A DNA stretch of 64,000 nucleotides from Schleiferilactobacillus shenzhenensis LY-73 (GTDB taxonomy: Bacteria > Bacillota > Bacilli > Lactobacillales > Lactobacillaceae): NCBI RefSeq assembly GCF_000469325.1, contig NZ_KI271583.1, forward strand, positions 18,215 to 82,214, read 5' to 3'. Every line of letters starts with the position of its first letter. The first letter of the stretch is position 1. The position numbers were made by a program, and so were the translations under genes. Positions 41,909-46,922 of this stretch are shown one piece after another. The notes under the pieces were generated by a model. That model ran no database searches, had not been told where the DNA came from, and saw nothing but the letters and a program-made list of their open reading frames with translations.

Positions 41909-42541
41909 TTACTTAGCCTGCGCGGCTTTCAACCGTTGCGCAATTTCTGCCTTGGTCCCCACAGAGATAAACAGCGGACCGTCTGACTGGGCGGGCAGGC
42001 TGTCGGCTAGGCCGCCTAAGTCGTATGGATCGAACCCGATTTGGTCGATTAAGTCTTTGACGGTGTTCTTCGCCTGCTTGTCGTCCCCGGCGATGGGCAC
42101 AGCGATGCGCTGCGGGTCGCCGGTGGGGCGGGGCATGGCGGTGATGCGGGCCATGGCGATGGTGTTGAAGCCCTTGACCACTTTCTTACTCTGCAATTGG
42201 CGAGCGACGAACTGGGACGTGGCCTCTTCGTGTTTCTCCAAATTCATGATATTCCCGTCCCGGTTCGGAAAGTAGTTGGTGACGTCCAAAATGATGGGAT
42301 CGCCGGGAAACGGCGCCGGCAATTCGCGGACCGCATTGAACGGCACAGCCAGCACGACCAGCGGCTGTTTCACGGCGTCCGCGATGGTGCCGGCGCTGGC
42401 GTTGACGCCCAGTTTCTCAATTAACGGATTCAAACTCTCCACGCTGTGGCGGTGGCTCATGACGACATGGTGACCGGCATGGACGAACAACTGCGCTAAG
42501 GCTTTACCCACATTCCCGGTACCGATAAACCCAATATCCAT
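41909..42541 (-). CDS. F420-type NADP-binding oxidoreductase
   Basis: 210 residues. The N-terminal Rossmann motif GFIGTGNVGKALAQLF is followed by a basic SHRHS that fits NADP. DVTNYFPNRDG and KGFNTIAMARI match the NADPH-dependent F420 reductase/YdcP-type group widespread in lactobacilli, which do not make F420; the true substrate is unknown. ATG 42541 with AAGGGGG. Confidence 0.82.
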   Translation of the reverse strand: MDIGFIGTGNVGKALAQLFVHAGHHVVMSHRHSVESLNPLIEKLGVNASAGTIADAVKQPLVVLAVPFNAVRELPAPFPGDPIILDVTNYFPNRDGNIMNLEKHEEATSQFVARQLQSKKVVKGFNTIAMARITAMPRPTGDPQRIAVPIAGDDKQAKNTVKDLIDQIGFDPYDLGGLADSLPAQSDGPLFISVGTKAEIAQRLKAAQAK

Positions 42542-42677: not shown

Positions 42678-42699
42678 CGCGGTCATTTGATTGCGCGAG

Positions 42700-42772
42700 T
42701 GGAGACTGCAGGGTTCGAACCTGCGACCCCTTGCATGTGATGCAAATGCTCTCCCAGCTGAGCTAAGCCTCC
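42700..42772 (-). tRNA. tRNA-Val (anticodon CAC)
   Basis: Cloverleaf read on the minus strand: acceptor GGAGGCT/AGTCTCC with one G-T pair, D arm GCTCAGCTGGGAGAGC, anticodon stem TTTGC/GCAAG around loop ATCACAT (anticodon CAC, decoding GUG), T arm GCAGGTTCGAACCCTGC, discriminator A. The CCA end is not encoded. It is a single gene with its own promoter (TTGATT, 16 bp, TATAGT at 42818-42791) and terminator. Confidence 0.95.
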
Positions 42773-42790
42773 AAAAACACTACGTCTACT

Positions 42791-42818
42791 ACTATAAAAC
42801 TTGTGGAAGAAAAATCAA
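42791..42818 (-). promoter_or_regulatory. Promoter of tRNA-Val
   Basis: On the minus strand TTGATT (42818-42813), 16-bp spacer, TATAGT (42796-42791), about 18 bases before the mature tRNA. Confidence 0.75.
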
Positions 42819-42922
42819 GGGAAAAGACACGGTTCGAGGGAAATTGTTAGCGTTTCCCGAGACAGCCTGTTATGCTTTTCTCGACAGTAATGGGGCCGTC
42901 AACAGAAAGCGGGGAGTCCATC

Positions 42923-43180
42923 ATGATTTACGAGGGCATTGCACTAGTGTTACTGGCCGTTCAGCTGCTGGCCAGCCGGAAGAAAAGTCTCGGCATGGGG
43001 ATCGTCAATATCGTAGCGTTTATTGCGTTCACCGCCGTGATCCTGCAGCTGCTCCTGGTCAGGATCACGGCACCCAACTGGCGTATCGCCACGGTCATTG
43101 GCATCGTCATTGTGGGGGTGGGGTGGACGGCCTGGCTGATCGTTCAACTCATCCGCCCCGTCCATCAATCGGCGGCTTAG
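42923..43180 (+). CDS. Small three-TM membrane protein
   Basis: 85 residues from ATG 42923 with a GGGGAG site. Three hydrophobic segments (about 3-16, 22-44 and 50-72), with ASRKKSLG between the first two. It resembles the 86-residue protein at 32144 in size and layout but not in sequence. No family recognised. Confidence 0.6.
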   Translation: MIYEGIALVLLAVQLLASRKKSLGMGIVNIVAFIAFTAVILQLLLVRITAPNWRIATVIGIVIVGVGWTAWLIVQLIRPVHQSAA

Positions 43181-43197
43181 GCAGAGGTCACAGCAGT

Positions 43198-43300
43198 TCA
43201 TTTGTTGTCCTCCGGGTCATGCACCTCATGCCATGCATTGAGCTGTGCCAGCCCCGTAACAGCCCGCCTCGGAGCCCAATCGGTGGGATGTGACCCGCAC
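43198..43300 (-). pseudogene. Relic of a rarA 3' end
   Basis: The minus strand reads HPTDWAPRRAVTGLAQLNAW then HEVHDPEDNK and a TGA at 43200-43198. The C-terminus of the RarA protein encoded at 45594-46922 is HPTDQGSEAKFAARLAQIKAW then HEAHDPDEP. HPTD, LAQ, AWHE and HDP are kept, with one codon deleted. Nothing RarA-like is seen further upstream in this frame. The relic and the live gene flank tex in the same orientation. Confidence 0.7.
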
Positions 43301-43309
43301 GGCGGTCCA

Positions 43310-43338
43310 TTGTGCCGCAACGGGGTTGTTGGTATGAT
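43310..43338 (+). promoter_or_regulatory. Promoter of tex
   Basis: TTGTGC (43310-43315), 17-bp spacer, TATGAT (43333-43338) with an extended TGG before it. Confidence 0.6.
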
Positions 43339-43390
43339 TAAACTTACTAAATCCGTGGGCTAATCCAGTAGAAAACGCGAGGAACAACGA

Positions 43391-45568
43391 GTGAGCAACA
43401 ACAAAATTATCCAACTGATTCAACATGAGTTAACCGAAATCACCGAGCACCAAATCGGCATGGTCATCCAATTAATGGATGACGGGAATACCGTCCCCTT
43501 CATTGCCCGGTACCGCAAAGAAATGACCGGCAACCTGGACGAAGTACAAATCCAAACCATCGAAGAAGCCTATCAGCGGGCCAACACGCTCCAGGACCGT
43601 AAGGCCGCCGTCATCAAAAGCATCGACGAGCAGGGCAAGTTAACGCCGCGCTTGACCCAGCAGATTGAAGCCAGCACAACACTCCCAGAGGTCGAAGACA
43701 TTTATTTGCCTTATAAGCAGAAGCGCCGCACCAAGGCGATGGTGGCCCGCAGCCAGGGACTGGCTGGACTGGCCGAGTGGCTGCTTTCATTTCCCACGGC
43801 GCCGCTAGACCATGAGGCAGAAAAGTATGTGACGCCAGAGAACGGCATCGAGACCGCTGAGGAGGCTCTCGCCGGCGCCCATGAAATCTTAGCGGAAGGT
43901 TTCGGCGAAGCCGCGGAATTGCGCGGGTGGATCCGCCGCTGGACGACCAATTCCGGTAAACTTAAAGTCGTTGCGAAGGCTAGCGCCAAGGACGTAGACG
44001 AAAAGGGCGTTTACCAACAGTATTACGATTTTGAGGCGCCCATAAAGAAAATCGCCGCGACGCAGACCTTAGCGATCAACCGCGGTGAAAAGGAAAAAGT
44101 ATTAACCGTCAAAGTCGTGACAGCGCCAGAGGCGGTCATGAACTTTCTGCACTTTAAGATTATTGCCAGTCACCCTGAGAGTGCCGCCACGAAGTTTATC
44201 GAAGCCGCCTACCAAGACGCCTACAAGCGCTTTATTGCCCCTGCCATTGAGCGGGAAGTACGCAATACGCTGACCGCGACAGCGGATGCCGCGTCCATTA
44301 AGGTGTTCGGTCAAAATTTATATCATCTGCTGATGCAGCCGCCGCTGAAGGGCAAGGTCGTGCTCGGCTTTGACCCCGCGTACCGGACCGGGTGCAAGCT
44401 GGCAGTGGTCAACGAAAACGGCAAACTGTTGGCCCAAACGGTGATTTATCCGCACCCGCCGGCCCCTGAGAAAAAGCGTCAGGCCGCCGCTGGTGAACTG
44501 ATCGACTTATTGGAAAAATACCAAGTGACCATGATTGCCATTGGCAATGGGACCGCCAGCCGCGAGTCAGAACAGTTCGTGGCCTCCGTGATCAAGCAGG
44601 CCAAACGGGACATTTTCTACGTTATCGTGAACGAGGCCGGCGCTTCTGTTTACTCCGCCAGTCAGGCCGCCCGGGATGAATTCCCGGACTTGCCGGTCGA
44701 ACGGCGCAGTGCGATCAGTATTGCCCGCCGGCTGCAGGACCCGCTGGCAGAACTGGTCAAAATTGACCCCGAATCGATCGGTGTCGGCCAATACCAGCAT
44801 GACCTGCCCAGCAAAGAACTCGCGAATGAACTGGACACGATCGTTGAACGGGCGGTGAATCAAGTCGGGGTGGATTTGAACACCGCCAGTGCCCAATTAT
44901 TGACCCACATTTCCGGGCTCTCATCAACCATTGCTGGCAACATTGTCCAGTATCGCGACGACCAGGGCCGGTTCACGACGCGGACCGCTCTGAAAAAGGT
45001 CCCGCGCCTAGGGCCCAAAGCGTTCGAACAGGCGGCAGGCTTTCTCCGGATTCACGACGGGCAGAACCCCTTAGACAACACCGATATCCATCCTGAAAGC
45101 TACCCCGTGGCGAAAAAAATCATGGCCGCGGCGGGTGTGGCAGCCGCTGATTTGGGCAGCGCTCAGGCGAACGCCCAAATCCAGCAAGTGGCCGCCGCGA
45201 ACTTCGTCACTGGCGAGGTCGGTGCGGCAACGGTCCACGACATCATTGCCAGTTTGCAGGCACCGGGCCGCGACTTGCGGGAGACAATGCCGGCCCCGCT
45301 GCTCCGCCAAGACGTGCTGACGATGGCGGACCTCAAAGTGGGCATGAAGCTGCAGGGCACGGTCCGCAATGTGGTTGATTTTGGCGCGTTCGTCGACATT
45401 GGCGTGAAACATGACGGTTTGGTCCACGTTTCTAAAATGGCCCGCAAATTTGTTCGGGACCCGAAGACCGTTGTGGCGGTGGGCGATATTGTCGATGTGT
45501 GGGTCGTCTCCGTTGACCTGGACCGGGAACGGATCCAATTGAGTATGGTTGAGCCTACTGAAGGGTAA
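43391..45568 (+). CDS. Tex-family RNA-binding transcription accessory protein
   Basis: 725 residues. The N-terminal Tex domain (VPFIARYRKEMTGNLDEVQI), a YqgF/RuvC-like central domain (VVLGFDPAYRTGCKLAVV), helix-hairpin-helix motifs (QLLTHISGLSSTIAGNIV) and a C-terminal S1 domain (KVGMKLQGTVRNVVDFGAFV) follow in family order. Involved in transcription or RNA metabolism. Start GTG 43391 with GAGGA. Monocistronic between the rarA relic and rarA. Confidence 0.95.
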   Translation: MSNNKIIQLIQHELTEITEHQIGMVIQLMDDGNTVPFIARYRKEMTGNLDEVQIQTIEEAYQRANTLQDRKAAVIKSIDEQGKLTPRLTQQIEASTTLPEVEDIYLPYKQKRRTKAMVARSQGLAGLAEWLLSFPTAPLDHEAEKYVTPENGIETAEEALAGAHEILAEGFGEAAELRGWIRRWTTNSGKLKVVAKASAKDVDEKGVYQQYYDFEAPIKKIAATQTLAINRGEKEKVLTVKVVTAPEAVMNFLHFKIIASHPESAATKFIEAAYQDAYKRFIAPAIEREVRNTLTATADAASIKVFGQNLYHLLMQPPLKGKVVLGFDPAYRTGCKLAVVNENGKLLAQTVIYPHPPAPEKKRQAAAGELIDLLEKYQVTMIAIGNGTASRESEQFVASVIKQAKRDIFYVIVNEAGASVYSASQAARDEFPDLPVERRSAISIARRLQDPLAELVKIDPESIGVGQYQHDLPSKELANELDTIVERAVNQVGVDLNTASAQLLTHISGLSSTIAGNIVQYRDDQGRFTTRTALKKVPRLGPKAFEQAAGFLRIHDGQNPLDNTDIHPESYPVAKKIMAAAGVAAADLGSAQANAQIQQVAAANFVTGEVGAATVHDIIASLQAPGRDLRETMPAPLLRQDVLTMADLKVGMKLQGTVRNVVDFGAFVDIGVKHDGLVHVSKMARKFVRDPKTVVAVGDIVDVWVVSVDLDRERIQLSMVEPTEG

Positions 45569-45593: not shown

Positions 45594-46922
45594 CTATGGC
45601 TCGTCTGGATCGTGCGCTTCATGCCAGGCCTTGATCTGCGCCAGCCGCGCGGCAAATTTTGCCTCCGACCCCTGATCGGTGGGGTGGTAATACTCGTGAC
45701 CGACCAGATTGTCCGGCATCGTCTGCATGGTGGTCAGCTTGTCCTTGGTATTGTGGGCATACTGGTAGTCCTCGCCGTAATGCAGGTCGGCCATCAGCTT
45801 GGTGGGCGCGTTGCGCAGCTGCAGCGGCACCGGCTCCGCGGTGGTCTCTTGAGCGTCCTTCTTGGCAGCGTCGTAAGCCGTGTAGAGGGCGTTAGACTTC
45901 GGCGCCAGGCTCAGGTAGACGACGCACTGGGTAAGGTTCACGGTACACTCGGGCATCCCAATGAAGTGGGCGGCTTGGTACGCGGCGACGGCGATCTCCA
46001 GCGCCCGGGAGTCGGCCAGTCCGACGTCCTCGCTGGCGAAGCGGATCAGCCGGCGGGCAACGTACAACGGGTCCTCGCCGCCCTCAAGCATCCGGGCCAG
46101 CCAGTAGATGGCGGCGTCTGGGTCGCTGTTGCGCATGGATTTGTGCAGGGCAGAAATGATGTTGTAGTGTTCTTCGCCTTTCTTATCGTAAAGCAGGGAC
46201 TTCTTCCCCAAAAGCGGCACCAGCGCGTCTTTCGTGATGGTGACGCCTTTTTTGTCCCGGGGCGAATTGAGCACGGCCATCTCCAGTGTGTTCAGTGCCA
46301 CCCGGGCGTCGCCGTTGGCGAACTCGGCCATGATCTGCAAGGCTTCAGGGGTCAGCGTGACGTGCTGCTTGGCTAAGCCCTCCGGCCGGGCCACCGCCCG
46401 TTGAATGATGGTGGCAATGTTGGCCGTGGTCAGCGGGTGCAGGACGAAGACCTTGCAGCGGGACAGCAGTGCGGAGTTGATCTCGAAGGACGGGTTCTCC
46501 GTGGTCGCCCCGATGAGGATGATACTGCCTTTCTCCACGTAAGGCAGAAAGGCGTCTTGCTGGGCCTTGTTGAAGCGGTGGATCTCGTCGACGAAGACGA
46601 TGGTGCGCTCGCCGTATTGGCGGTTGGCCTCGGCGGTCTTCATCACCTCGCGAATCTCCTTGATGCCGCTGGTAACAGCACTGAAGTGGATGAACTTGGC
46701 CTTCGTCTGTTCGGCGATGATCTCGGCCAAGGTGGTCTTGCCGGTCCCTGGCGGCCCCCAGAAGATGAGGGAGGGCACGTCGTCGTGGCTGATCATCTCC
46801 CGCAGCGCCCCGTTCTCGCCCACCAGCTGGTCCTGACCGACGAAATCGGCGAGGGTACGGGGTCGCATCCGCGCCGCCAGGGGTTCCCGGGCTTCGTTGA
46901 TCGAATCGAATAAAGAGGTCAT
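45594..46922 (-). CDS. rarA: Replication-associated recombination protein RarA (MgsA)
   Basis: 442 residues. AAA+ ATPase that acts at stalled replication forks with SSB. Walker A GPPGTGKTTLAE, Walker B VFVDEIHRFNKAQQD, sensor GATTENPSFE. The start ATG 46922 gives MTSLFDSINEAREPLAARMRP as in relatives; a longer frame upstream is rejected. Convergent with tex; only 25 bases separate the stops. Confidence 0.96.
   Translation of the reverse strand: MTSLFDSINEAREPLAARMRPRTLADFVGQDQLVGENGALREMISHDDVPSLIFWGPPGTGKTTLAEIIAEQTKAKFIHFSAVTSGIKEIREVMKTAEANRQYGERTIVFVDEIHRFNKAQQDAFLPYVEKGSIILIGATTENPSFEINSALLSRCKVFVLHPLTTANIATIIQRAVARPEGLAKQHVTLTPEALQIMAEFANGDARVALNTLEMAVLNSPRDKKGVTITKDALVPLLGKKSLLYDKKGEEHYNIISALHKSMRNSDPDAAIYWLARMLEGGEDPLYVARRLIRFASEDVGLADSRALEIAVAAYQAAHFIGMPECTVNLTQCVVYLSLAPKSNALYTAYDAAKKDAQETTAEPVPLQLRNAPTKLMADLHYGEDYQYAHNTKDKLTTMQTMPDNLVGHEYYHPTDQGSEAKFAARLAQIKAWHEAHDPDEP

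What the first reader, a model, noticed from the sequence alone, without database searches (positions are those of the whole stretch)
43198..43300. Relic of the rarA 3' end on the other side of tex
The last 30 codons of RarA are recognisable (HPTD, LAQ, AWHE, HDP and stop) directly upstream of tex, in the same orientation as the intact rarA that lies directly downstream of tex. This is a footprint of a duplication or of tex having been inserted between two rarA copies.
Basis: seen in the sequence. Interest (0 to 1): 0.5.

Follow-up and report, generated by a model that had tools for sequence, protein, structure and literature searches.

The report
Stranded rarA tail beside inserted tex
The last 30 codons of the DNA-repair gene rarA survive as a decayed scrap on the far side of the neighbouring gene tex, which marks where tex was spliced in next to rarA in this bacterium but not in its two closest relatives; it is a neat but ordinary scar of gene acquisition.

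Summary
On the minus strand at about 43196-43290, between a small orphan ORF and tex, lies a decayed copy of the last ~30 codons of rarA. It matches the intact rarA end (45594-45686) at 62 of 83 aligned bases and scores far above shuffled sequence. Its only good matches in 121 whole genomes are rarA C-termini. The two other genomes held of the genus show the empty site: rarA ends 54-69 bases from the same tRNA-Val gene, and neither genome has tex. The pre-insertion state was therefore tRNA-Val/rarA, and the 2.2-kb tex unit, with leader, was placed at the rarA 3' end, leaving a tail stranded next to the tRNA. No second full rarA copy is needed. The likeliest route is recombination with homology at one end only, tex arriving attached to another rarA 3' end; tandem duplication is not excluded. 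Tex groups with Lacticaseibacillus tex. No comparable tail was seen around 120 other rarA loci, so rarA is no evident integration hot spot. This is a real footprint of a known kind, of low general interest.

The parts
42699..42772 (-). tRNA-Val (CAC), syntenic anchor: beside the rarA 3' end in both congeners
   Evidence: ARAGORN; same gene at L037 1321-1395 and L038 1354-1428; blastn 86-88%
42923..43180 (+). orphan ORF, 85 aa, hydrophobic; present only in this genome, so it may or may not have come with the insertion
   Evidence: no Pfam or NCBIfam match; no match in the other 349 of 350 family genomes at E 1e-4; weak 29% match E 0.0013 in G001
43196..43290 (-). relic: last ~30 codons of rarA, stop codon at 43196-43198, with indels
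43288..43328 (.). interval that holds the joint between relic and tex leader; no homology to either side shown
   Evidence: relic homology ends at 43290; leader homology begins at 43329 or before
43329..43390 (+). tex leader, similar to the leader of three related g12 genomes
   Evidence: 0, 3 and 0 of 1000 shuffles as good against L202, L203, L204; the other 23 of 26 leaders, L200 and L201 included, were not clearly above shuffles
43391..45568 (+). tex (725 aa), complete
   Evidence: Tex_N, Tex_central_region, Tex_YqgF, HHH_3, HHH_9, S1 domains; absent from both congeners
45594..46922 (-). intact rarA (442 aa), convergent with tex, 25 bases between the stop codons
   Evidence: AAA, AAA_assoc_2, MgsA_C; 92% and 87% identical to the congeners' rarA; groups with them

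Best explanation
The relic is the stranded 3' end of rarA. Ancestral state: tRNA-Val followed within tens of bases by the end of rarA. A DNA piece carrying the tex transcription unit entered at the rarA 3' end, and the sequence that ran from tex into rarA carried its own rarA 3' end, so that rarA stayed whole. The joint on the other side of tex fell inside the resident rarA, about 30 codons before its stop, and cut off that tail. Cut from its promoter and start, the tail gathered indels and is now a scar. Most likely mechanism (inferred): recombination with homology at one end (rarA) and an illegitimate joint at the other (upstream of the tex promoter), as in homology-facilitated illegitimate recombination. 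Shown: relic, empty site, absence of tex in the congeners. Inferred: direction, donor and mechanism.
For: Relic real and specific to rarA. Empty site in both congeners: tRNA-Val to rarA stop 69 bases (G001) and 54 bases (G002), against 2821 in the window. No tex in either (best matches are S1 domains, residues about 646-719) and no counterpart of window 42773-43390. Both tex joints are tight: 25 bases on the rarA side, about 40 on the relic side. The intact rarA is the lineage's own gene: grouped with the congeners' (100%) and 90% identical to G001 in the alignment columns 1200-1300 near the 3' end. Relic and intact tail differ at 3, 5 and 13 sites of codon positions 1, 2, 3, 13 of 21 at third positions; P = 0.007 for this few at positions 1-2 if all sites changed freely, 0.09 if only the relic did. 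So much of the divergence looks as if gathered while both were coding, that is, in two lineages. The distance (25%) lies between those of the window's tail to G001's (15 of 87 bases) and G002's (26 of 87). Insertion with one homologous and one illegitimate end is documented in three transformable species and in E. coli conjugation (PMC3240628, passages read).
Against: No genome was found with tex next to this rarA that could be the donor: 0 of 40 tex loci read with flanks up to ~10 kb (one had the other rarA paralogue about 4 kb away). The joint interval shows no diagnostic microhomology that I could name. The codon-position signal rests on 21 differences. Only three genomes of the genus are held. 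The orphan ORF between tRNA and relic is not explained.
Confidence: 0.6

Rival explanations
1. Tandem duplication inside the genome: rarA, or its 3' part together with tex, was duplicated, and the extra material was then deleted down to the tail.
For: The relic is closest to the own rarA by score (33, against 29 for G001 and 17 for G002) and shares AWHE with it. Needs no outside rarA donor.
Against: Needs more steps, and a deletion that removed all but 30 codons; the relic is about as distant from the intact tail as another species' rarA, with mostly third-position changes. It still has to explain where tex came from. L041 (g12) scores 29, as high as G001, so the nearest source of the tail is not resolved.
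Confidence: 0.25
2. Site-specific integration: the rarA 3' end served as attachment site of a mobile element that carried tex, and the relic is the displaced gene end; integrase and the rest were lost.
For: Geometry (gene end restored on the insert, old end displaced to the far side) is that of such elements, by general knowledge (recalled).
Against: No integrase or other mobile gene lies between relic and rarA, only tex. No stranded rarA tail near 120 other rarA loci, many with short flanks. Phage records with a rarA tail match: 11 of 50,697, best 48% identity, most of them not annotated and none followed. Two tails only 75% alike do not look like att cores.
Confidence: 0.07
3. tex stood here in the ancestor of the genus and was lost in both congeners.
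For: tex is often missing: 18 of 60 genomes have S1-domain matches only (my count from the best_E column). Tex of the window may be sister to, not inside, the Lacticaseibacillus clade (AU p 0.56).
Against: Needs two clean losses that each also removed the relic and put rarA within 54-69 bases of the tRNA; and the relic itself says that a rarA end lay left of tex before or when tex came.
Confidence: 0.06
4. Chance similarity.
For: Only about 28 residues, half of them identical.
Against: Shuffle tests, reverse search and expected position.
Confidence: 0.02

Closest known systems
Homology-facilitated illegitimate recombination (HFIR) in Streptococcus pneumoniae, Acinetobacter baylyi, Pseudomonas stutzeri, and E. 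coli conjugation (PMC3240628, passages read)
   Same: Foreign gene added beside a resident gene, with homology usable at one side only; insertion tied to loss of resident sequence at the other joint
   Different: The joint is old and decayed, no donor is known, and the 3-10 bp microhomology reported for HFIR could not be read here
Orphaned 3' ends left by effector-module displacement in Vibrio cholerae type VI clusters and Rhs loci (PMC5361080, passages read)
   Same: A new 3' segment enters at a gene with a conserved 5' part and pushes the old 3' end downstream, where it stays as an orphan
   Different: There the gene ends are variable effectors under selection and arrays build up; here a housekeeping gene, one event, and a non-functional remnant
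Displaced 3' gene ends beside integrative elements (recalled, no call)
   Same: Gene end restored, old end on the far side of the insert
   Different: No integrase, no near-identical core, insert is one housekeeping gene

Membership tests
HFIR-type insertion scar | Foreign segment absent from the relatives' empty site | tested here: met
   tex absent, tRNA-rarA adjacent in both congeners
HFIR-type insertion scar | Homology at one joint | tested here: inconclusive
   rarA end present at both joints, as expected, but no donor with tex next to rarA found: 0 of 40 tex loci
HFIR-type insertion scar | Microhomology at the other joint, with deletion of resident DNA | tested here: inconclusive
   Joint lies somewhere in 43288-43328, too decayed
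Integrative element in the rarA 3' end | Integrase gene within the insert | tested here: not met
   Only tex lies between relic and rarA
Integrative element in the rarA 3' end | Near-identical direct repeats (att core) at both ends | tested here: not met
   62 of 83 bases alike, with indels
Tandem duplication remnant | Remnant nearer to the own gene than to any relative's | tested here: inconclusive
   Scores 33 (own), 29 (G001), 29 (L041), 17 (G002)

The most novel reading that the evidence does not exclude
The rarA 3' end is an unrecognised integration site: a mobile element that carried tex used it, restored rarA, and decayed until only tex and the displaced tail were left.
Probability: 0.06. 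Interest if true: 0.4.

Novelty: new member of a known kind. Interest (0 to 1): 0.17.

Why it matters
It is a readable scar of how a housekeeping gene (tex), which many Lactobacillaceae lack, was put into a genome: a single gene with its leader, placed tightly against a neighbour without breaking it. Stranded gene tails of this kind could be searched for systematically to find insertion events that gene-content comparison alone cannot orient. By itself it changes no current view.

Tried and rejected
Looked for a stranded rarA tail next to rarA elsewhere: 121 loci, window included (a few are the same genome twice, and many have 1.5-kb flanks); only the window gave a clear hit (E 1.5e-5); the best of the others was E 0.008, near what 120 searches give by chance. 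Looked for extended homology beyond HPTD: a MAFFT view suggested it, shuffles did not support it. Looked for tex next to rarA in other genomes: 0 of 40 loci. sprT is beside tex in 20 of those 40, in none of the 16 g12 loci, and stands alone elsewhere in all three genomes of the genus, so tex here did not come with sprT. Base composition of tex: third-position GC 0.686, with 11 of 39 long window ORFs lower, so no sign of recent foreign origin. Tree: window tex falls with g12 (99%, 18 rows), but a tree with g12 as a clade without it is not rejected (AU p 0.56) and the pairing with five casei-like rows has only 70% support, so transfer against shared descent is unsettled. Plasmids: 108 records encode a Tex, best 60%, no vehicle evident; the RarA tail matches 29 plasmid records, none of them followed. 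A 43-base match of the region elsewhere in the own genome (E 0.0017) lies in what reads as a ribosomal-protein operon and was taken as chance. A joint paper search for rarA, tex, Lactobacillus and insertion found 0 papers; this is the only search behind the view that the locus itself is not in print.

The genus: g12 holds Lacticaseibacillus (rarA of L. chiayiensis, L070, is identical to that of G154). That the window's genus g1 is Schleiferilactobacillus is my guess from genome size and G+C and comes from no call; the paper listing for that name was seen as a listing only and not used. 'casei-like' for the g12 rows L173-L177 is likewise a label of mine.

Full report
What is there. Reading left to right, the window has a tRNA-Val gene (42699-42772, minus), an 85-aa orphan ORF (42923-43180, plus), the relic (43196-43290, minus), tex (43391-45568, plus) and rarA (45594-46922, minus). 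The relic's minus-strand frame ends HPTD-WAPRRAVTG-LAQLNAWHEVHDPEDNK-stop; RarA ends HPTD-QGSEAKFAAR-LAQIKAWHEAHDPDEP-stop. 62 of 83 ungapped aligned bases agree. In 1000 dinucleotide shuffles the best DNA score was 18 against 33 observed, and in 5000 translated shuffles the best protein score was 66 (next 49) against 78 observed. Across the 64-kb window the relic is the only second place for the RarA tail (E 3e-5, next 0.16). In the reverse direction the relic's frame finds the rarA C-terminus of its own genome and of G001, and little else, in 121 genomes. Similarity stops at HPTD; what lies further toward tex is not above shuffles.

The empty site. The held collection has three genomes of the genus. 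G001 and G002 carry rarA at 92% and 87% protein identity, with its stop codon 69 and 54 bases from the same tRNA-Val gene, and synteny on the other side of rarA continues into the permease and beyond. Neither has tex; their best matches to Tex are S1 domains of other proteins. DNA of window 42773-43390 has no counterpart in them. So the pre-insertion order was tRNA-Val then rarA, and the window's genome has gained 2.8 kb there. The relic lies on the tRNA side of tex, where the rarA end used to be.

What was inserted. The insert between the two rarA ends is tex with its leader only. The tex stop is 25 bases from the rarA stop. The leader (43329-43385) resembles those of three related g12 genomes (0, 3 and 0 of 1000 shuffles as good), while 23 other leaders, two more of the casei-like group included, were not clearly above chance. 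Tex itself is nearest to g12 (73-74%) and groups with it (99%), yet sisterhood outside g12 is not rejected (AU p 0.56). rarA by contrast groups with its congeners (100%) and apart from g12 (99%). tex is patchy: 18 of the 60 genomes show only S1-domain matches (my count). In 20 of 40 tex loci sprT follows tex; in the three genomes of this genus sprT stands alone elsewhere.

How it came about. Both tails have the same reading direction and the same distal end, and an intact rarA is kept. The differences between the tails are 3, 5 and 13 at codon positions 1, 2 and 3. If every site had changed freely so few at positions 1-2 has P 0.007; if only the relic changed freely, P is 0.09 (the 0.55 expectation used there is my own rough figure). 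This leans to two rarA lineages that diverged as working genes and met by recombination, over a duplicate that only decayed. The one-sided recombination known from transformation fits: homology in rarA anchors the incoming DNA, the far end joins where it can, here inside the last 30 codons of the resident rarA. PMC3240628 (passages read) describes that reaction; PMC5361080 (passages read) proposes the same for gene ends pushed downstream in Vibrio type VI clusters. I found no donor with tex beside rarA (0 of 40), and the joint is too decayed to read. A tandem duplication followed by deletion remains possible, an integrative element is unlikely (no integrase, tails not identical, no second case in 120 other rarA loci).

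Verdict. It is a single case of a known kind of event.

Noticed in passing
42923-43180: 85-aa hydrophobic orphan ORF between tRNA-Val and the relic, with no match in 349 other family genomes at E 1e-4; only a weak 29% match in G001. Whether it came with tex is unknown.
   Followed up: partly
left of 42699: The DNA beyond the 3' end of tRNA-Val differs in all three genomes of the genus; in G002 the oxidoreductase of 41909-42541 lies several kb farther from the tRNA. It may be a tRNA-linked variable site.
   Followed up: no
L220 5794-6264; L221 6089-6559; L222 5926-5456: sprT, elsewhere often the partner downstream of tex, stands without tex beside an ABC-transporter cluster in all three genomes of the genus.
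   Followed up: partly
G056 C10 191955-194097: tex is broken into two pieces with stop codons inside in this genome of the same order, one more sign that tex is dispensable.
   Followed up: no
L206 8436-15855: In G103 tex lies about 4 kb from the other rarA paralogue (39% identical), the only one of 40 tex loci with any rarA-like gene near; G103 has no match to the window-type rarA at E 1e-150.
   Followed up: no
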